From: Bacillota bacterium
Lineage (GTDB): Bacteria > Bacillota > DSM-12270 > Thermacetogeniales > Thermacetogeniaceae
Assembly (NCBI GenBank): GCA_029907475.1
Contig: JARYLU010000024.1
Span: 1 to 43,929, forward strand
Reading direction: 5' to 3'
Length of the DNA: 43,929 nucleotides
Shown here: positions 13,440-43,854 of the stretch, in pieces
How the letters are laid out: each line of letters opens with the position of its first letter
Numbering within the stretch: position 1 is the first letter of the stretch
Position numbers and translations under genes: made by a program
The notes under the pieces: generated by a model
The model's input: the letters and a program-made list of their open reading frames with translations, nothing else
What the model was told of the DNA's origin: nothing
The model's database searches: none

Positions 13440-13507
13440 CTATGTACTGGAGAAACCGGCACTTATTTTAAAAGACAAACAGAGCATCCATGTCCATTTT
13501 TCGACAG

Positions 13508-13624: not shown

Positions 13625-13640
13625 TGGCATGTTAATTGCA
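13625..13640 (+). promoter_or_regulatory. sigma-54 (-24/-12) promoter of the CoA-transferase/Hdr operon
   Basis: TGGCATGTTAATTGCA matches the sigma-54 consensus TGGCAC-N5-TTGCA with the invariant GG and GC exactly 10 bases apart. The start of transcription would be near 13651, about 120 bases before the first gene. A palindrome lies at enhancer distance upstream, and sigma-54 activator genes lie in the window. Confidence 0.85.
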
Positions 13641-13772: not shown

Positions 13773-14486
13773 GTGAAAGTTGTTTCCGTGGAGGAAGCTG
13801 TGGCTCAACTTAAGGATGGAATGACCATAATGATCGGTGGCTTTCTTGATGTTGGAATACCTTTAAAAATTGTCGAGAAACTATGCGAGACAGATGTCAA
13901 GGATTTAACCTTGATTAATACATGCGGCTCCATGGTTGGAGGCGGTTTTGGTACGGCGTACCTTTTCGCCCAGGGTAAAATTAAGAAATACATCACAAGC
14001 CACGTAGGTGTTGCTCCCGAACACTTAAATGCTTATAAAGAAGGGAAGCTCGAAGTCGAATTCTACCCCATGGGATCGTGGATCGAGAAAATTCGCGCCG
14101 GGGGAAGCGGTTTAGGCGGCGTCCTGACACCTGTGGGAGTTGAAACGCTCGTAGAAGAAGGGAAGCAGAAGGTAACCATTGATGGCAAGGAATATCTCAT
14201 CGAATTGCCGTTAAGAGCGGATATCGCTTTTATTAAAGGGTACCAGGCAGACCGGTTTGGAAATGTAAGATGCCGTTATCTCCAAAGGAATAACAATCCC
14301 ATCATGGCCTTTGCCGCAGATTATGTTGTCTGTGAGGTCAATGAATTTGTGGATGAACTTGATCCCGATCTGGTTCACATCGTCGCCCCGCTGATCGACG
14401 CACATGTAAAAGGTTACACCTTTGAAGAAGAACAGCAGATATACCGCGACCTGTGGAAGGAAAGAAAGAGGCTCAAGGCTGGTTAA
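13773..14486 (+). CDS. class I CoA-transferase subunit A (ScoA/AtoD-like)
   Basis: The GTG at 13773 (MKVVSVEEAVAQLKDGMTIM) has AGGTGGG 7 bases upstream and fits better than the GTG at 13761; this gives 237 residues. It has the family marks GGFLDVGIPLKIVEKL, GSGLGGVLTPVGVETLVEEG and PLRADIAFIKG, then LQRNNNPIMAFAADYVV. With subunit B it moves CoA from an acyl-CoA donor to an organic acid. It is the first gene after the sigma-54 promoter. The substrate (acetoacetate, succinate, butyrate or another acid) cannot be read from the sequence. Confidence 0.92.
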   Translation: MKVVSVEEAVAQLKDGMTIMIGGFLDVGIPLKIVEKLCETDVKDLTLINTCGSMVGGGFGTAYLFAQGKIKKYITSHVGVAPEHLNAYKEGKLEVEFYPMGSWIEKIRAGGSGLGGVLTPVGVETLVEEGKQKVTIDGKEYLIELPLRADIAFIKGYQADRFGNVRCRYLQRNNNPIMAFAADYVVCEVNEFVDELDPDLVHIVAPLIDAHVKGYTFEEEQQIYRDLWKERKRLKAG

Positions 14487-22585: not shown

Positions 22586-22636
22586 TAGTGGAACATCTCT
22601 TAGAACGTGAGTTTTGTGGGGAGAGGGGGGGAAAAC

Positions 22637-24412
22637 TTGAAGTGCGAGATTGACCTTACGAACCTGAAAGCAAACGAGATTATGCAAACTGAATTTTTAA
22701 CAACACTTGAAAATACACGAATAGCTGATATTTTCAACGATCTGGTTAACAGCGACAAGGAAGAATTGATTGTCCTGGATGGGGAGAAGCAACCGTGCGG
22801 CATTGTCACGAGAAAGGTGGTGCTGCGAAAACTTAAAAAAGGCGTAGACCCCGAGAGCCCTGTATGCGGGATTATGCAGCAGCCGTTAATCACCGTACAG
22901 AGCGATGACAGCGTTTACTTTGTGCGCGAGGTTATGCGCAAGCACCAAATCGGACGGGTCCCGGTTGTTAATAAGGCAGGCAAAGTAGTCGGTCTTGTCA
23001 CCGCAGTTGCGATTTGCAACGGTTTTTCTGATAAGCTTGAGGAAGTAGGCAGCCACCTTCAGGCGATAATCGATTCCATTGGTGTCGCGACCCTTGTTTT
23101 TAACAGGTTTTGCCGCCTTGTTTACTGGAATCAAATGGCCAAGCTGATTTATAAAGATAAAATCAAGCTACACGTCCGCTGTGAAGAACTTTTTGAATCG
23201 AAAGTGCTCAAGGAAATTCTTGAGACAGGAAAAACCATAAAAAATATTTACGAAGTGAACCAAGACAGGCATTTAGTAAAAAATGCAAGCCCTATCATTA
23301 AACAGGGAAAGGCCATTGGAGTTGTTTGTACCATAGAAGATGTAACGAAGGTTGTTAACTTAATGCATAAGGCAGAGGTAATCAACGAAAAAGAGGAACT
23401 GATTGAAAGGCCTGGATCGGGAAAGGGCAGCTTGCGAACCTGCCCTAAGCCTCCCTGCTTTGAGGCTTTTGAGAGCAGGAACCCAAATGCCAATAAATTA
23501 GTTAAACTGGCAAAAAAGGTAGCCAAAGTTGACGTAACTGTTTTAATTAGAGGTGAAACCGGAACCGGTAAAGAGCTTATGGCGCGTTCATTACACCTGG
23601 CAAGCTCCCGCAAAAATAACCCCTTTGTCATTGTGGACTGCAGTGCGGTGCCGGAAAAGCTTTTTGAGACCGAGCTGTTTGGTTACGAGGCCGGTGCTTT
23701 TACTGGGGCCTCTAAAAAGGGCAAAAAAGGCAAATTGGAATTAGCGGATAAAGGAACCCTATTCCTTGATGAGATCGGGGAGCTTCCTCTTGAGATGCAG
23801 TGCAAGCTTTTACGCGTTATTCAGGAAAAAGAGTTTTACAGGGTTGGGGGATTAAAGCCAATTAAAGTAGATGTCCGCTTCCTTGCTGCAACCAACAGAG
23901 ATCTCGAAGAAATGGTAAAAGAGGGGACTTTTCGTGAAGATTTATTTTACCGCCTAAATGTGATTACCTTGGAGCTACCAAGTTTGAGGGAAAGATCTGA
24001 AGATTTGGCGGATCTTATTTTCGAATTTTTTAATCATTTTAGTGATATCTACAAAATACCGATTAGTATTATTGAAAAAGGCGTTATTTCATCTCTGGCA
24101 AATTACGATTGGCCTGGAAATTACCGGGAGCTAAGGAATGTTACCGAAAGGCTTGTACTCCTTTCGGAAAATGGTTGTATTAAAATGGAACATGTTCCAG
24201 ATGTGATAAAAAATCTGACTCGCGGAGAAAAAAGTGAAAGAAAGAATAAAAGTGTTTATTGTTTAGAGGAATATATTGAGCAAAAAGAAAGGGAAGAAAT
24301 TATTAAGGCCTTAGAAAGGCATGCAAACAACAAAGCTCAAGCAGCGCGTGCTCTGAAAATTCCTCGCAGCACTTTGTATTACAAGATGAAGGCATTAAAT
24401 ATTAATATATAG
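22637..24412 (+). CDS. sigma-54-dependent transcriptional activator with CBS pair and PAS domain
   Basis: 591 residues from the TTG at 22637, which sits 5 bases after GGGGGGG; a GTG at 22607 is possible. Residues about 20-130 are a CBS pair ([33 protein letters not shown]). Residues about 135-240 are PAS-like ([20 protein letters not shown]). The AAA+ domain has Walker A GETGTGKE (about 306), GAFTGA sigma-54 contact loop (about 352) and Walker [12 protein letters not shown]. The C-terminal Fis-type HTH is [20 protein letters not shown]. It would activate sigma-54 promoters such as those at 13.6, 24.7 and 26.0 kb; the ligand of the CBS/PAS sensor is unknown, adenine nucleotides or a CoA ester being reasonable guesses. 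Confidence 0.95.
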
Positions 24413-24422
24413 TTGAGCAATT

Positions 24423-24440
24423 TTGTGCAAAGATGCACAA
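24423..24440. promoter_or_regulatory. perfect palindrome TTGTGCA-N4-TGCACAA (copy 1)
   Basis: Two perfect 7-base arms with an AAGA centre lie 11 bases after the activator stop. The same palindrome with another 4-base centre occurs at 42250-42267 between two sigma-54 promoters. Here it is about 280 bases upstream of the -24/-12 element at 24702. It is a candidate enhancer site. Confidence 0.6.
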
Positions 24441-24478: not shown

Positions 24479-24701
24479 CTTAAGCCCCCGTTTATCTTTA
24501 GACCTGTCTTCTACTCCCAGGCGTTGGCCAGCTCCGGAGGGCGGACTCCCTTATTGGTTCTTTCGAATTCCCAGTGATGTCAAAGAGTGTACAAGATCCC
24601 GACATATTGTTTAATACTGCTGCTTCAACCTCCGCCAGGTCTTTGAGGGCAAGGATAAATCGAGGCATATTTTCAGGGCAGACCAAAGAGCTGATTCGAT
24701 T
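24479..24701. other. intergenic stretch, no supportable gene
   Basis: A minus-strand frame (24498-24707) reads in part MPRFILALKDLAEVEAAVLN and looks mildly protein-like, but it has no SD and no recognised family, and it ends in low-quality sequence. It may be a remnant. The stretch also contains half-sites reminiscent of the GTGTCA repeats at 25.84 kb (around 24575-24590), which is weak evidence. Confidence 0.3.
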
Positions 24702-24716
24702 TGGCATATTTCTTGC
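24702..24716 (+). promoter_or_regulatory. sigma-54 (-24/-12) promoter upstream of the CoaD-like gene
   Basis: TGGCATATTTCTTGC has GG and GC 10 bases apart and matches TGGCAY-N5-TTGC. Transcription would start near 24728, about 150 bases before the GTG of the CoaD-like gene. An AAGGAGGG at 24729-24736 follows without a useful ORF. Confidence 0.78.
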
Positions 24717-25690: not shown

Positions 25691-25746
25691 GGCATAGAGC
25701 CCCGGGGGGAGAGGGCAACCCTTCAGGGGTTGCACGGGCCTATGCC
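25691..25746 (+). other. compound RNA hairpin (nested stems)
   Basis: An outer stem GGCATAG-a-GCCC / GGGC-CTATGCC encloses an inner stem GCAACCC / GGGTTGC, with a T-rich tract (TTTTCTGTTCTTT) downstream. It could be a strong terminator or the 3' part of a small RNA. No riboswitch class is recognised. Confidence 0.45.
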
Positions 25747-25839
25747 TCATTTTCTGTTCTTTAATGTTTTACTCGCAAAAAAACGTGCCATTTAAAAATC
25801 GCTTGTCAAAGCTGCCCTCAACGGGACTAGTTTTTGTAA

Positions 25840-25961: not shown

Positions 25962-25976
25962 TGGCATGTTTTTTGC
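25962..25976 (+). promoter_or_regulatory. sigma-54 (-24/-12) promoter of the enoyl-CoA isomerase gene
   Basis: TGGCATGTTTTTTGC, followed by T, is a near-consensus -24/-12 element with GG-N10-GC. The start would be near 25988, giving a leader of about 135 bases. Confidence 0.87.
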
Positions 25977-26088: not shown

Positions 26089-26124
26089 AATTATAATTTA
26101 ATTATAAAAAAAGGAGTGGTTTTT

Positions 26125-26907
26125 GTGGCCTGGGAAACGCTATTGTTTGAAAAGGTTGACGAGATCGGGGTAATCACTCTAAACCGCCCGGATAAGATGA
26201 ACACCATGACCCCCCAGTTTCTCAAAGAATATGAGGAAGTCGTAACGGCGGTAGCAGATGACCCCGAAGTCAGGGTTGTTGTCTTAAAGGCAAACGGCAG
26301 GGCTTTCAGTGCGGGAGGAGATTTCGAACTTCTGAAGATGCTTGATACTCCTGTGAGGGCCCGGGCCGCGATCAGGTCTCTGGGGAGTACAATTGCAAAA
26401 ATATACAACATGAGCAAGCCCTGGATTGCTGCAGTTGATGGAGCCGCTGCAGGGGGCGGTGCGAACCTTGCCTTATCCTGCGATTTTGTTTTTGCTTCCG
26501 AAAAGGCGCGGTTTGGACAGGCCTTTATTAATATTGGTCTCGTGCCAGACACGGGTGGGCTCTGGACCCTTGCAAGGCTGACGGGAATCACACGCGCTAA
26601 AGAGCTTGCCATGACCGGACGTCTCATTGATGCAGAAGAGGCAGCGCGCTATGGCATGGTTTTGAAGGTGGTTCCCTCGGATCAGTTATACGACGAGGTA
26701 ATGGCTTTTGCCAGGCAGCTCGCGGAGAAGGCCCCCATTGCAATTGGTTTTATCAAGCAGCTAGCCAACAGGTTGAGCGATATTTCGCTGGAAACCTACT
26801 TCGATCTTGAAGCCGATTACATGGCGATTGCGCTGCGGACCGAAGACCATAAAGAAGGGTTAGCGGCGTTTACTGAAAAAAGGAAACCAGAATTCAAAGG
26901 TAAGTAG
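26125..26907 (+). CDS. enoyl-CoA hydratase/isomerase family protein, PaaG-like
   Basis: 260 residues from the GTG at 26125, 8 bases after AAGGAG. The crotonase fold shows NRPDKMNTMTPQFLKEYEEV, the oxyanion-hole segments GRAFSAGGDFELL and DGAAAGGGANLALSCDF, and FGQAFINIGLVPDTGG. The two glutamates of true enoyl-CoA hydratases are replaced (GGGCELA to GGGANLA, QPE to QAF), while the Asp of V-P-D-x-G-G is kept as in PaaG. So a double-bond isomerase or PaaG-type activity is more likely than hydration. It is a single gene under a sigma-54 promoter and ends at a shared terminator. Confidence 0.88.
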   Translation: MAWETLLFEKVDEIGVITLNRPDKMNTMTPQFLKEYEEVVTAVADDPEVRVVVLKANGRAFSAGGDFELLKMLDTPVRARAAIRSLGSTIAKIYNMSKPWIAAVDGAAAGGGANLALSCDFVFASEKARFGQAFINIGLVPDTGGLWTLARLTGITRAKELAMTGRLIDAEEAARYGMVLKVVPSDQLYDEVMAFARQLAEKAPIAIGFIKQLANRLSDISLETYFDLEADYMAIALRTEDHKEGLAAFTEKRKPEFKGK

Positions 26908-39666: not shown

Positions 39667-39788
39667 CTGGGTCCCTTCCTTTAAAGTTTTTAATTAAAAT
39701 TCCACACAATTAGAAAGTTTCCTGCTACCTTGTGATGAAAGTCTTAGATGGTCCTGATTGGAAGCAGGATACTCAGGAAAATAGTCGA

Positions 39789-39817
39789 ATTATAGCTAGT
39801 GTAAAACTTCACAAAAA
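39789..39817 (-). promoter_or_regulatory. possible sigma-A promoter for acyl-CoA dehydrogenase
   Basis: On the minus strand TATAAT stands 17 bases after a poor -35 (TTTTTG), about 120 bases before the gene. Only the -10 is convincing. No -24/-12 element was found here. Confidence 0.3.
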
Positions 39818-39837: not shown

Positions 39838-41295
39838 TTGTCTGGATTTCTGTTTACGGTGGGGGAGGGGGTTTTCATAAGTTTAAAACCGGTTAAAAGA
39901 ATTTATTATCTTCACGGTTCACATTCAGAGAAGAAGAGGTTTTCAGCTGGTACAAGCAGCCCTCTGGATTTGCTGGAGGCATCACATGATGGTTTATTTA
40001 TTTTCGACTGTCAGGGACAGGTTATCTTAGCCGTGGGCTTTACCATAGAAAATCAAACAGATTCTTTGTTCCGGGACCTGGTTCACGAGGTGGTCAAATC
40101 TGGTAAAAGAGTCAGTACTTTGTTGCAGGACTCAGGACAGACCTATTTGATTACTGCGAATCCTGTTTTTAATCTGCGCCATAACGTTTCCCACGTAGTA
40201 TGCAACATTCGCAACCTGGAAGAACTGAATTCGCTTGAAAGAGAGATTCAGCACCTCACTCTCCTGGAAAAGAGACAGTTTAACTTGAGCGAATGGATTG
40301 AAGAGAGAGAAGAGCTTAAGGAAATTGTGAGCCGGAGTGCCGCGATGCGGCGCGTTCTAATATCAGCTCTGCGAGTTGCTCAGGTTGATTCTACGGTTTT
40401 AATCTTAGGAGAATCCGGGGTTGGCAAGGATATGCTGGCGCGACTCATTCACCAAGCTGGAAAGCGCGGGGACCGTCCTTTTGTTAAGATTTCTTGCGGT
40501 GCGATCCCTGAAAATCTTTTAGAATCGGAGTTATTTGGCTACGAAAGCGGAGCCTTCACGGGGGCGCGCAAAGAGGGAAAACCTGGTCTTTTTGAACAAG
40601 CCGCCGATGGAACAGTTTTTCTTGATGAAATAGGCGAACTCCCCTTAACTCTGCAGGTTAAACTGCTTAATGTTTTGCAGGATCGTAATTTTCTAAGGGT
40701 CGGAGGAGTGAAACCGGTTCCGACAACCGCTCGGGTGGTTGCAGCAACAAACAGGGATTTAGAGCTCCAAGTAAAGGAGGGAAATTTTCGTGCCGATCTT
40801 TTTTACCGTCTCAATGTAATCCCTTTGCTGATTCCTCCCCTGCGAGAGCGCCGGGGTGATCTTTTGCCTCTTATCAATCATTTTCTTGAACTTTTTTGCG
40901 AGCGTCACGGTTTTAAGCGAAGCCTTGCACCGGCAGCCTTAAACTACCTGATCAAGTATGACTGGCCGGGTAACGTCCGGGAGCTTCAAAATGTCATGGA
41001 GTTTTTAGTTGTCATGACACCGGATGAGATTATTGATGTAGAGCATCTTCCAGAGAAGATTGTGGAGAGCATTCGGGGAGCAGAATTCACTGTCAGGTCA
41101 CTGGCCCCGGAAAATGTTCGACTTAAAGACGCTCTGGAGGAGTACGAGAGGGACTTGATCAACCGCGCCCTGGAGGGACATGAAACACTTCGGGAAGCCG
41201 CGGAAAGCTTGGGAATTGATCTCTCGACCCTTACAAGAAAAAGACAAAAATACGGCTTAATCAGGTATAAAGATCATTATGAAAGTTGCAACTAA
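39838..41295 (+). CDS. sigma-54-dependent transcriptional activator with PAS-like sensor
   Basis: Up to 485 residues. The N-terminal about 150 residues are a PAS-like sensor (LLEASHDGLFIFDCQGQVIL) and a linker coil. The AAA+ domain has Walker A GESGVGKD (about 191), the GAFTGA loop (about 238) and [11 protein letters not shown]. The C-terminal HTH is Fis-like (HETLREAAESLGIDLSTLTR). The start is unclear: TTG 39838 and GTG 39859 lack an SD, while a very strong GGGGGAGGGGG stands 5 bases before an in-frame ATA at 39877. It probably drives the sigma-54 promoters at 42.2-42.35 kb; that pairing is inferred from proximity. Confidence 0.94.
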   Translation: MSGFLFTVGEGVFISLKPVKRIYYLHGSHSEKKRFSAGTSSPLDLLEASHDGLFIFDCQGQVILAVGFTIENQTDSLFRDLVHEVVKSGKRVSTLLQDSGQTYLITANPVFNLRHNVSHVVCNIRNLEELNSLEREIQHLTLLEKRQFNLSEWIEEREELKEIVSRSAAMRRVLISALRVAQVDSTVLILGESGVGKDMLARLIHQAGKRGDRPFVKISCGAIPENLLESELFGYESGAFTGARKEGKPGLFEQAADGTVFLDEIGELPLTLQVKLLNVLQDRNFLRVGGVKPVPTTARVVAATNRDLELQVKEGNFRADLFYRLNVIPLLIPPLRERRGDLLPLINHFLELFCERHGFKRSLAPAALNYLIKYDWPGNVRELQNVMEFLVVMTPDEIIDVEHLPEKIVESIRGAEFTVRSLAPENVRLKDALEEYERDLINRALEGHETLREAAESLGIDLSTLTRKRQKYGLIRYKDHYESCN

Positions 41296-41370: not shown

Positions 41371-41973
41371 TCAACCGGCTTTTATAAGGGGTTTTCCCAG
41401 CGGGAGAATGGTTTTCTTGAAGACGGTATTCAAAACTACTCCCCCGGCCAGGTAGATGCCGATGATACCTAAGAAAAGAAGGAACCAACCGGCAACGGGG
41501 GCACCGATATGGTGGCCGATAATCCCAAGGTCCATTAGTGCCACGGCCCAGATCGCTATATCTGCAAAGATCAGACCCAGGAATAAGATCGACGATCCTA
41601 CAAGGTATGCGGGAGTAAGTAAAGTTGTAGCAATTGCTAAAACCAGCCAGGCATATCCGTCAATCTGGGCTGCAAAAGGCAGTCCTGTCACACCAAGTAG
41701 ATACTTAGTAACTGATTCCAGTCCCCCGGTAAACATGAAAAACGCTGCAAAGTAAGTGAAAACGTTCCCACCTGCAATGTTTTTATCTTTAAGTTCGATA
41801 ACCGCCGTGATGATTTGAGCTATAAAGCCTCCGAATTGCCAGCAGGCGAGAATCGGGAGGGCTTCGTGGGGGACCCTACCCGTTAGCAGCGCGAACAAGG
41901 TAAAGCATGCAATGGCCAGACCAATCAACCCTGCCGGTGTTGGATTCGCAAAACTGTGCTCGTGCTGAGACAT
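41371..41973 (-). CDS. acetate uptake transporter, GPR1/FUN34/YaaH (SatP) family
   Basis: 200 residues with six membrane helices. The family signature N-P-[AT]-P-x-G-L appears as FANPTPAGLIGLAIACFTLF near the N-terminus, and FTYFAAFFMFTGG in the middle. These proteins are hexameric channels or proton-coupled carriers for acetate, succinate or other short acids. It is transcribed from a strong sigma-54 promoter at 42187, divergent from the CaiB-like gene, so acid uptake and CoA activation share a control region. Confidence 0.93.
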   Translation of the reverse strand: MSQHEHSFANPTPAGLIGLAIACFTLFALLTGRVPHEALPILACWQFGGFIAQIITAVIELKDKNIAGGNVFTYFAAFFMFTGGLESVTKYLLGVTGLPFAAQIDGYAWLVLAIATTLLTPAYLVGSSILFLGLIFADIAIWAVALMDLGIIGHHIGAPVAGWFLLFLGIIGIYLAGGVVLNTVFKKTILPLGKPLIKAG

Positions 41974-42172: not shown

Positions 42173-42187
42173 GCAAAAAGTGTGCCA
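42173..42187 (-). promoter_or_regulatory. sigma-54 (-24/-12) promoter of the yaaH-like gene
   Basis: Read on the minus strand, TGGCACACTTTTTGC matches the consensus TGGCAC-N5-TTGC with GG-N10-GC. The start would be near 42161, with a leader of about 190 bases. Confidence 0.88.
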
Positions 42188-42249
42188 CTGAATGTCTCAT
42201 CAACTCAGAAGGGTGGTAGAAAGTTAAAGTATAGATCGAATCCCTGAAT

Positions 42250-42267
42250 TTGTGCACAAATGCACAA
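42250..42267. promoter_or_regulatory. perfect palindrome TTGTGCA-N4-TGCACAA (copy 2), shared enhancer site
   Basis: The centre is about 97 bases upstream of the yaaH-like start and about 107 bases upstream of the CaiB-like start, so it is placed to serve both sigma-54 promoters. It has the same arms as the palindrome at 24423-24440. A degenerate second copy follows at 42283-42300. Confidence 0.7.
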
Positions 42268-42339
42268 TTTTCACGCAAAACAGTGTGATTATTTGCACAA
42301 GAACTTAATAAGAACTGCGAAACATCCTTCCTTGCTCAC

Positions 42340-42354
42340 TGGCACATTTTTTGC
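42340..42354 (+). promoter_or_regulatory. sigma-54 (-24/-12) promoter of the CaiB-like gene
   Basis: TGGCACATTTTTTGC is an excellent -24/-12 element (GG-N10-GC). The start would be near 42366, giving a leader of about 200 bases. Confidence 0.9.
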
Positions 42355-42573: not shown

Positions 42574-43854
42574 ATGAAGTGTATCGATGAAATACAAAGA
42601 GTGCCTGCTCCGGCACTGATTCCGTCGTTTGGACCTTTGGCAGGAATGAGGGTTCTATCTACGGGGAGCATTGTCGCAATGCCTCATGCCGCCAATATGC
42701 TGGCGGATTTCGGGGCTGAAGTAATCCACGTCGAGCGTCCCAAGGGGGGAGATACCTATCGTACTTTGGCGCCTTTTGTGAAGGACGGAGAAAAGGGCGT
42801 AAGCGCAAGCTGGGCACAAGACGCCCGGAACCGTTTAAGCATGACACTTGAAGTTAACCTGAAAATCCCCGAAGCCAAAGAAATCTTTTTGGGCCTGATC
42901 AAAAATGCGGACATCTGGTTTGAGAATCTTGTCTGGTTAGAAAAATTTGGGATTTCCGATGAAATGTGTCTTGCCGTCAACCCGCGGCTTGTGATTGTTC
43001 ACATCAGCGGGTTCGGGAGGCCCCAGTTCGGAGGTATCCCTGAGGTCTGCGACCGGGGCTCTTATGATATGATAGGGCAGGCGGCAAGCGGCTGGATGAG
43101 TTTAATGGGATTCCCCGAACCGAACCCTCCCTCCATGGCAAAGCCCTGGAGCAACGACTACATCTCCGCCATGTTTGCTGTTTTTGGAGCCCTGATTGCC
43201 TACGTCCACGCCCAGAAAACCGGGGAGGGGCAGGTAATTGACATTGCTCAATACGAGGCCAATGCCCGCATTCTCTGCGATACCTTCGTGTCTTATTTGG
43301 AGGCCGGTATTTTGCGCCAGCGGACGGGGAATAAATCCCCCGCCTTCCAGCCTTACGATGTTTTTCGGGCGAAGGACCGCTGGGTTGCCGTGGGTGCTTT
43401 TGGCCCTGCTGTTTACGAGCGCTTTATCAATGCCCTGGACCTTGACCCCAACTACTATACCTGGAAGGAATGCGCCTCATCGGTGGAAGCTGTCGCGTCT
43501 GAAAAAGGGCAGGAGCTGGACCGCTTAACCCGGGAATGGGTTGGTGGCCGTACAGCCAAGGAAGTAGAAGAACACATGGCAAAATACAAGGTTCCCTGTT
43601 CTATTGTCTGCGATGCCAGGGACGCAGTTGATAATCCCCACTGGCAGGCGCGGGAAAACTTTATTGAATACGAGGACCAGACTCTAGGCAGGAAAATTAA
43701 GGCACTTGGTATAATACCAAAACTTGATAAAACACCAGGGAAGGTTTGGCGAGGAGCACCCCGGGTAGGGCAGGATACTGAGTCAATTCTTTCGAAAATC
43801 CTGGGTTATAGCCAGGCAGAAATTGAGGTCTTGAAGGAAAAAAGAATTATTTAA
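42574..43854 (+). CDS. CaiB/BaiF class III CoA-transferase (CaiB-like)
   Basis: 426 residues; the ATG follows GGGGGG. The class III fold is clear: FGPLAGMRVLSTGSIVAMPH, MLADFGAEVIHVERPKGGDT, HISGFGRPQFGG and GEGQVIDIAQYE. The catalytic Asp is expected in WSNDYISAMF, aligning with TADYF in E. coli CaiB. The C-terminus (IIPKLDKTPGKVWRGAPRVG) is closest to CaiB, which transfers CoA between butyrobetainyl-CoA or crotonobetainyl-CoA and carnitine. The match to CaiB is from memory of the family; other substrates are quite possible. It stands alone under a sigma-54 promoter. Confidence 0.92.
   Translation: MKCIDEIQRVPAPALIPSFGPLAGMRVLSTGSIVAMPHAANMLADFGAEVIHVERPKGGDTYRTLAPFVKDGEKGVSASWAQDARNRLSMTLEVNLKIPEAKEIFLGLIKNADIWFENLVWLEKFGISDEMCLAVNPRLVIVHISGFGRPQFGGIPEVCDRGSYDMIGQAASGWMSLMGFPEPNPPSMAKPWSNDYISAMFAVFGALIAYVHAQKTGEGQVIDIAQYEANARILCDTFVSYLEAGILRQRTGNKSPAFQPYDVFRAKDRWVAVGAFGPAVYERFINALDLDPNYYTWKECASSVEAVASEKGQELDRLTREWVGGRTAKEVEEHMAKYKVPCSIVCDARDAVDNPHWQARENFIEYEDQTLGRKIKALGIIPKLDKTPGKVWRGAPRVGQDTESILSKILGYSQAEIEVLKEKRII

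What the first reader, a model, noticed from the sequence alone, without database searches (positions are those of the whole stretch)
42173..42354. One palindrome set midway between two divergent sigma-54 promoters, with a twin after the first activator gene
TTGTGCA-N4-TGCACAA at 42250-42267 lies about 100 bp from the expected starts of both the YaaH and CaiB-like genes, with a weaker copy at 42283-42300. The same arms with a different 4-base centre stand at 24423-24440. Arms conserved while centres differ is what a dimer-binding site looks like.
Basis: partly seen in the sequence, partly recalled or inferred. Interest (0 to 1): 0.72.

Follow-up and report, generated by a model that had tools for sequence, protein, structure and literature searches.

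The report
Shared enhancer between two sigma-54 promoters
The palindrome is very probably the docking site of the neighbouring sigma-54 activator protein, which switches on a carboxylic-acid/acyl-CoA gene set; the same activator type, binding site and gene set recur in distant bacteria, so this is a solid new example of a known kind of genetic switch.

Summary
TTGTGCA-N4-TGCACAA lies at 42250-42267, about 107 bp from the predicted caiB start and 97 bp from the predicted yaaH start, between two perfect divergent -24/-12 promoters. A weaker copy is at 42283-42300 and the twin at 24423-24440. In the 3.01-Mb genome there are exactly two perfect copies, both on this contig; about 0.01 would be expected by chance. 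The site pair is conserved upstream of caiB in two relatives, including the 'weak' copy.

The binder is most likely the second activator (EBP2, 39838-41295), not the first (EBP1). A relative without an EBP1 ortholog still has four sites. EBP1's own promoters carry a different palindrome, TGTC-N8-GACA. Activators with EBP2's recognition helix (STLTRK) in unrelated families have the same motif ahead of sigma-54 promoters (7 of 10 against 1 of 26 with other helices). A matrix built only from three distant genera ranks 42250 and 24423 first in the window. In the distant genomes the site precedes acyl-CoA dehydrogenase-EtfBA, so this is one conserved regulon.

It is a new member of a known kind: a TGT-N10-ACA upstream activator sequence of a Fis-type sigma-54 activator. 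Binding has not been tested.

The parts
42250..42267 (+). UAS 1: palindrome TTGTGCA-CAAA-TGCACAA, proposed EBP2 dimer site
   Evidence: conserved ahead of caiB in G003 and G010
42283..42300 (+). UAS 2: GTGTGAT-TATT-TGCACAA, 33 bp (about 3 turns) from UAS 1
   Evidence: ATGTGAT-N4-TGCACA(A/C) at the same place in G003 and G010
42173..42187 (-). sigma-54 promoter TGGCACACTTTTTGC reading to yaaH
   Evidence: no mismatch
42340..42354 (+). sigma-54 promoter TGGCACATTTTTTGC reading to caiB
   Evidence: no mismatch
39838..41295 (+). EBP2: sigma-54 activator (AAA+ domain, lid, HTH_50/Fis-type HTH with helix GIDLSTLTRKRQKYG); proposed binder
   Evidence: PF00158 1.7e-66; PF18024 1.6e-9
41371..41973 (-). 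GPR1/FUN34/YaaH-family transporter, proposed target
   Evidence: 26 bits, cut-off 25; below the NCBIfam cut-offs for acetate uptake transporters
42574..43854 (+). CoA-transferase family III (CaiB-like), proposed target; the contig ends 75 bp later
   Evidence: PF02515 9.4e-101
24423..24440 (+). twin site TTGTGCA-AAGA-TGCACAA, 11 bp after the EBP1 stop codon, 270 bp (centre to -24) ahead of the coaD sigma-54 promoter
24702..24716 (+). sigma-54 promoter TGGCATATTTCTTGC ahead of coaD; likely promoter served by the twin
   Evidence: 1 mismatch to TGGCAC; TGGCAT is the clostridial consensus, PMC6615313
24820..25386 (+). coaD, pantetheine-phosphate adenylyltransferase
   Evidence: TIGR01510 168 bits, over its cut-off of 103
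22607..24412 (+). EBP1: CBS-CBS-AAA+-HTH_8 sigma-54 activator, PrdR-like but below the PrdR cut-off (567 of 795 bits)
13491..13506 (+). TGTC-CATTTTTC-GACA: candidate EBP1 site 134 bp ahead of the CoA-transferase sigma-54 promoter at 13625
   Evidence: conserved in G003
24578..24593 (+). TGTCAAAGAGTGTACA: weaker candidate EBP1 site 124 bp ahead of the coaD promoter
   Evidence: similar site ahead of coaD in G003
39797..39814 (+). TAGTGTA-AAAC-TTCACAA 24 bp ahead of EBP2, inside a block conserved with G003; possible autoregulation or another operator

Best explanation
42250-42267 and 42283-42300 are tandem upstream activator sequences (UAS) for the sigma-54 activator encoded next door, EBP2 (39838-41295). 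Dimers bind the two TGTGCA half-sites, the two sites sit about three helical turns apart, an ATPase hexamer assembles there, and DNA looping lets it open sigma-54 polymerase at either the caiB promoter (42340) or the divergent yaaH promoter (42173). A signal read by EBP2's N-terminal part, probably a carboxylic acid or its CoA ester, would thus switch on uptake/export and CoA-activation together. The twin at 24423 belongs to the same EBP2 regulon and probably gives EBP2 control over the coaD promoter at 24702, in a cluster that also has its own activator, EBP1, using a different palindrome (TGTC-N8-GACA). Shown here: the sites, promoters, conservation, near-absence elsewhere in the genome, and linkage to the EBP2-type recognition helix. 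Inferred: binding, hexamer assembly, looping, the signal, and the target of the twin.
For: (1) Two perfect copies in 3.01 Mb, 0.011 expected, both on this contig; none elsewhere. (2) In G003 (same genus) the EBP2 ortholog (73% identical) is followed by TTATGCAGTCATGCACAA, ATGTGATCATTTGCACAA, a sigma-54 promoter and caiB with near-identical spacing (89/58 bp to -24, against 90/57 here); in G010 (another genus) two sites stand between divergent sigma-54 promoters of yaaH and caiB, next to an EBP2 fragment (71%). (3) G010 has four sites but no EBP1 ortholog at E<=1e-110; only G000 and G003 of 20 family genomes have EBP1. (4) STLTRK-helix activators in other families (G040, G083, G255 of f22; G328 of f115) carry 11-13/14 sites ahead of a sigma-54 promoter for acyl-CoA dehydrogenase-EtfB-EtfA, with CoA-transferase A/B following in G040 and G328. 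Tally at >=12/14: 7 of 10 STLTRK against 1 of 26 others, Fisher P=1e-4. (5) A matrix from G040/G083/G328 alone ranks 42250 (21.3) and 24423 (20.6) first in the window; the maximum in 20 Markov windows was 16.1. (6) The motif is TGT-N10-ACA, the largest UAS class of clostridial sigma-54 activators in PMC6615313. (7) The genome encodes sigma-54.
Against: No binding or expression data. Three STLTRK-helix activators lack a >=12/14 site near the promoter examined (G132, G301 and a G003 paralog; G132 and G301 have degenerate versions). The hypothesis was formed after seeing G000, G003, G010 and G040, so only G083, G328 and G255 (hits) and G132, G301 and the G003 paralog (misses) are independent trials. 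G003 keeps the sites without yaaH, so control of yaaH is supported by position and by G010 only. The twin lies 270 bp from the next sigma-54 promoter, just beyond the usual 100-250 bp, and its position is not conserved in G003.
Confidence: 0.83

Rival explanations
1. EBP1 (22607-24412), the PrdR-like CBS activator, binds the palindrome, and the twin after its gene is its own site.
For: The twin is 11 bp after the EBP1 gene; in G003 a pair of these sites stands ahead of the CoA-transferase operon of the EBP1 cluster. The PrdR group uses TGT/ACA sites with a 10-12 bp spacer (PMC6615313).
Against: G010 has four sites and no EBP1 ortholog; the recognition helices of EBP1 and EBP2 differ; the EBP1 cluster promoters carry a different conserved palindrome, TGTC-N8-GACA; distant genomes link the motif to EBP2-type helices.
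Confidence: 0.07
2. Rex (NADH/NAD+ sensor, a repressor) binds; the motif is a variant of the Rex operator TTGTGA-N6-TCACAA and the sites add redox control.
For: The arms resemble Rex operators (PMC7306483, PMC8457756); the genome has rex; the targets are redox genes.
Against: No site ahead of rex; no TTGTGAA-N4-TTCACAA in the genome and no scatter over usual Rex targets; the sites sit about 100 bp upstream of sigma-54 starts, an activator position; the motif follows the activator helix across families.
Confidence: 0.05
3. EBP2 binds, but only the caiB promoter is controlled; the even spacing to yaaH is incidental.
For: G003 lacks yaaH here but keeps both sites at the same distance from the caiB promoter. 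The half-site on the caiB side is the more constant one (7 against 23 mismatches in 17 sites; P=0.005; sites not independent).
Against: The yaaH promoter is a perfect -24/-12 match 97 bp from the site centre, and the divergent layout recurs in G010.
Confidence: 0.15

Closest known systems
YctR regulon of Clostridioides (crt-gntT-caiB-bcd-etfAB; PMC6615313)
   Same: Sigma-54 activator predicted to control a caiB/acyl-CoA dehydrogenase/Etf operon through an upstream site
   Different: The paper lists the YctR motif as distinct from the TGT-ACA class; here a divergent YaaH transporter is a further target; orthology of the regulators was not tested
TGT-N10-ACA UAS class (PrdR, CrbR, XcgR, AdhR, NifA, FhlA; PMC6615313)
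   Same: Inverted TGT/ACA with a 10-bp spacer, often in multiple copies, usually 100-250 bp ahead of -24/-12 promoters
   Different: Here the inner bases are fixed as TGTGCA-N4-TGCACA and follow a particular helix (STLTRK); no published motif with this consensus was found in the text read
Rex operator (TTGTGA-N6-TCACAA / TTGTTAA-N4-TTAACAA)
   Same: 18-bp palindrome with a 4-bp centre and TTGTG arms
   Different: Differs at positions 6 and 13; not at rex or typical Rex targets; sits at UAS distance from sigma-54 promoters

Membership tests
Upstream activator sequence of a Fis-type sigma-54 activator | Inverted repeat with TGT and ACA 10-12 bp apart | tested here: met
   TGT-GCANNNNTGC-ACA, spacer 10
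Upstream activator sequence of a Fis-type sigma-54 activator | Located upstream of a -24/-12 promoter (mostly 100-250 bp in Clostridiales) | tested here: met
   57-110 bp from site edge to the -24/-12 element, about 97-107 bp from UAS 1 centre to predicted starts; the twin (270 bp) falls just outside the usual range
Upstream activator sequence of a Fis-type sigma-54 activator | Activator gene with sigma-54 interaction domain and HTH nearby, and sigma-54 in the genome | tested here: met
Upstream activator sequence of a Fis-type sigma-54 activator | Site conserved ahead of orthologous targets with orthologous activators | tested here: met
Upstream activator sequence of a Fis-type sigma-54 activator | Physical binding by the activator and activator-dependent transcription | not testable with these tools
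   needs gel shift, footprinting, reporters
Rex operator | Sites ahead of rex and usual Rex targets, consensus TTGTGAA-N4-TTCACAA | tested here: not met
PrdR (for EBP1) | NCBIfam TF_PrdR score at or above the cut-off of 795 bits | tested here: not met
   566.7 bits
PrdR (for EBP2) | NCBIfam TF_PrdR score at or above the cut-off of 795 bits | tested here: not met
   377.1 bits
Acetate uptake transporter (for the YaaH-like protein) | NCBIfam cut-off for AceTr_1 (50 bits) or PRK10659 (297 bits) | tested here: not met
   38.2 and 44 bits; the Pfam family PF01184 is met, 26 against 25

The most novel reading that the evidence does not exclude
This family of sigma-54 activators may follow a readable helix-to-operator code. 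Helices with STLTRK go with TGTGCA arms, VNQSTVVRK with TTGTGAA arms (L016, L204; near-matches in L169, L184), IDLSTLVRK with TATGCA arms (L044, partly L047), so a regulon could be predicted from the protein sequence alone. Here the same code would place coaD (CoA supply) and acyl-CoA/CoA-transferase genes under one sensor acting in trans, beside a second activator with its own operator.
Probability: 0.4. Interest if true: 0.55.

Novelty: new member of a known kind. Interest (0 to 1): 0.42.

Why it matters
It assigns a binding motif, a target set and a probable protein to a sigma-54 activator of little-studied bacteria that carry acyl-CoA dehydrogenase, Etf and CoA-transferase clusters. How anaerobes that oxidise such acids control their metabolism is little known (PMC4324140 says so for syntrophic consortia), and a sequence-level rule linking helix to operator would let regulons be read from genomes that nobody can grow.

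Tried and rejected
Matches with 2 mismatches and the relaxed core TGTGMW-N4-TGCACA: the extra hits in the own genome are not ahead of a plausible sigma-54 target (C1 inside a gene, C4 at the start of a radical SAM gene). Rex: rejected as above. EBP1: rejected as above. Class-wide pattern search: the class holds only this family's 20 genomes, so it added nothing. MAFFT alignment of the three caiB regions misaligned G010 because of its longer spacer; the sites were compared directly instead. Activators with other helices mostly carry other palindromes. The overlapping match at 24413-24430 is a shadow of the 24423 site. Rfam on the window: no match. The class of G040 gave only one further activator with this helix (G301), which has degenerate sites.

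Full report
WHAT IS THERE. The window is a whole 43,929-bp contig (C24) of a 3.01-Mb, 99.65% complete genome. The sequence TTGTGCACAAATGCACAA at 42250-42267 and the copy TTGTGCAAAGATGCACAA at 24423-24440 are exact; GTGTGATTATTTGCACAA at 42283-42300 departs at three arm positions. The flanking promoters, TGGCACACTTTTTGC on the minus strand (42187-42173) and TGGCACATTTTTTGC on the plus strand (42340-42354), are the only perfect TGGCAC-N5-TTGC matches in the window. With the promoter GC taken as -12, the predicted starts are about 42161 and 42366, and the palindrome centre lies 97 and 107 bp upstream of them.

CHANCE. At the window's base composition 0.011 perfect copies are expected in the genome; there are two, both on this contig, and none of the reversed control pattern. 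Of 20 genomes searched in the family, only G000 and G003 of the same genus have perfect copies. A relaxed core, TGTGMW-N4-TGCACA, gives five places in G000, of which three are the sites discussed and the other two (C1 and C4) lie inside or at the start of genes without a plausible sigma-54 promoter; in G003 and G010 all four distinct places are sites ahead of sigma-54 promoters.

CONSERVATION. In G003 the EBP2 ortholog (73% identity) is followed directly by TTATGCAGTCATGCACAA and ATGTGATCATTTGCACAA, a sigma-54 promoter and caiB; the distances to the promoter are 89 and 58 bp, against 90 and 57 bp in the window. There is no yaaH at this place in G003. In G010, of another genus, TTGCGCAATAGTGCATAA and ATGTGATATTTTGCACAC stand between a minus-strand promoter for yaaH and a plus-strand promoter for caiB, with an EBP2 fragment (71%) next door. 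The weak second site, with its left arm TGTGAT, is therefore not noise. A second group of pairs lies in the coaD/CoA-transferase neighbourhood: G003 TTGTGTATTCTTTCACAA + TTGTGCAGGAATGCACAA, 22 bp apart, ahead of the CoA-transferase operon; G010 TTATGCAATTTTGCACAA + TTGTGATAAACTGCACAA, 23 bp apart, after coaD and ahead of another sigma-54 promoter. Pair spacings of 31-33 and 22-23 bp are close to three and two helical turns.

WHICH ACTIVATOR. The window has two sigma-54 activators: EBP1 (22607-24412: two CBS domains, AAA+, HTH_8) and EBP2 (39838-41295: AAA+, HTH_50). Their recognition helices differ: [15 protein letters not shown] and IDLSTLTRKRQKYGL. Three lines favour EBP2. First, EBP1 has no ortholog in G010 (nothing at E<=1e-110), yet G010 has four sites. 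Second, promoters of the EBP1 cluster carry a different conserved palindrome, TGTC-N8-GACA, at 13491 ahead of the CoA-transferase operon (two copies in G003) with weaker forms ahead of coaD in both species. This also fits the TGT/ACA class reported for PrdR; CooA has the same consensus (PMC7306483), so assignment to EBP1 is an inference. Third, a search of 398 genomes of the phylum with the EBP2 HTH domain found activators with the same helix in unrelated families. Sites of 12/14 or better within 320 bp upstream of a TGGCA-N6-TTGC promoter were found for 6 of 7 STLTRK activators and 0 of 17 others; with 20 further loci the tally is 7 of 10 against 1 of 26 (Fisher P=1e-4). The one exception among the others is TTGTGAA-GGAA-TTCACAA beside a VNQSTVVRK helix. 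Limits: G000, G003, G010 and G040 had been seen before the test was framed; the independent hits are G083, G328 and G255, the independent misses G132, G301 and a G003 paralog. A matrix made only from G040, G083 and G328 sites puts 42250 (21.3 bits) and 24423 (20.6) first in the window, against a maximum of 16.1 in 20 Markov-simulated windows.

WHAT IT CONTROLS. In G040, G083, G255 and G328 the STLTRK activator is followed by its sites, a sigma-54 promoter and acyl-CoA dehydrogenase-EtfB-EtfA; in G040 and G328 CoA-transferase subunits A and B follow. In G003 and G010 the operon behind the sites is caiB-acyl-CoA dehydrogenase-EtfB-EtfA. Gene names in these relatives are read from sequence resemblance, not from a family search. 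In the window caiB is the last gene before the contig ends. The regulon is thus an acid-activation and acyl-CoA oxidation set. On the minus strand, a YaaH-family transporter is added in G000 and G010.

MECHANISM. EBP2 dimers bind the two half-sites (arms constant, centres variable), a hexamer forms on the paired sites, and ATP-driven remodelling opens sigma-54 polymerase at either promoter by looping. Sites, promoters, activator and sigma-54 are shown; binding, looping and the signal are inferred from what is established for this activator class. The half-site nearer the main promoter is more constant (7 against 23 mismatches in 17 sites, P=0.005, related sites not independent). The twin at 24423 is 270 bp from the coaD promoter, slightly outside the usual 100-250 bp (PMC6615313); EBP2 control of coaD is the best guess, with a candidate EBP1 site at 24578 nearer.

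KNOWN KINDS. The motif belongs to the TGT-N10-ACA class of activator sites reconstructed for Clostridiales, where most activators control neighbouring operons and often have multiple sites (PMC6615313). YctR (crt-gntT-caiB-bcd-etfAB) is the nearest regulon by content, with a motif the authors call distinct. I found no published motif with this consensus in the text read; the supplement with all motifs was not open to me. The nearest solved DNA-binding domains by sequence are NtrC-family domains (3e7l, 4fth; E about 1e-3). Rex operators resemble the motif but fail on distribution.

VERDICT. The finding is real and its interpretation holds with a refinement: EBP2 is the likely binder of all copies. 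It is a well-supported new regulon of a known kind rather than a new kind of system.

Noticed in passing
25691-25750 (also G003 L041 about 13945-14005, minus strand, and G004 L151): A single-copy hairpin GGCATAG..CCCCGGGGGGAGAGGGCAAC-loop-GTTGC..GGGCCTATGCC in three genomes of the genus; the internal-loop sequence is constant while the upper stem changes on both sides. It stands at different places in the cluster in G000 and G003. No Rfam match; folds with z = -2.1 and -2.8. Possibly a small structured RNA or a terminator.
   Followed up: partly
39780-39815: A block of about 35 bp ahead of EBP2 (GTCGAATTAyAGCTAGTGTAAAACTTCAC) is almost identical in G003 although the flanks differ; it contains TAGTGTA-AAAC-TTCACAA. 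Possible autoregulatory or other operator.
   Followed up: partly
13491-13506, 24578-24593: TGTC-N8-GACA palindromes (exact and with one mismatch) ahead of the sigma-54 promoters of the EBP1 cluster, with counterparts in G003; candidate sites for EBP1, though CooA has the same consensus.
   Followed up: partly
L016, L169, L184, L204: Activators with helix VNQSTVVRK have TTGTGAA-N4-TTCACAA or close variants ahead of sigma-54 promoters, a sequence that a motif scan would call a Rex operator.
   Followed up: partly
25962-25976: Sigma-54 promoter TGGCATGTTTTTTGC ahead of the crotonase gene (26116-26907) with no TGTC-N8-GACA match within 330 bp upstream and no TTGTGCA-type site nearby.
   Followed up: no
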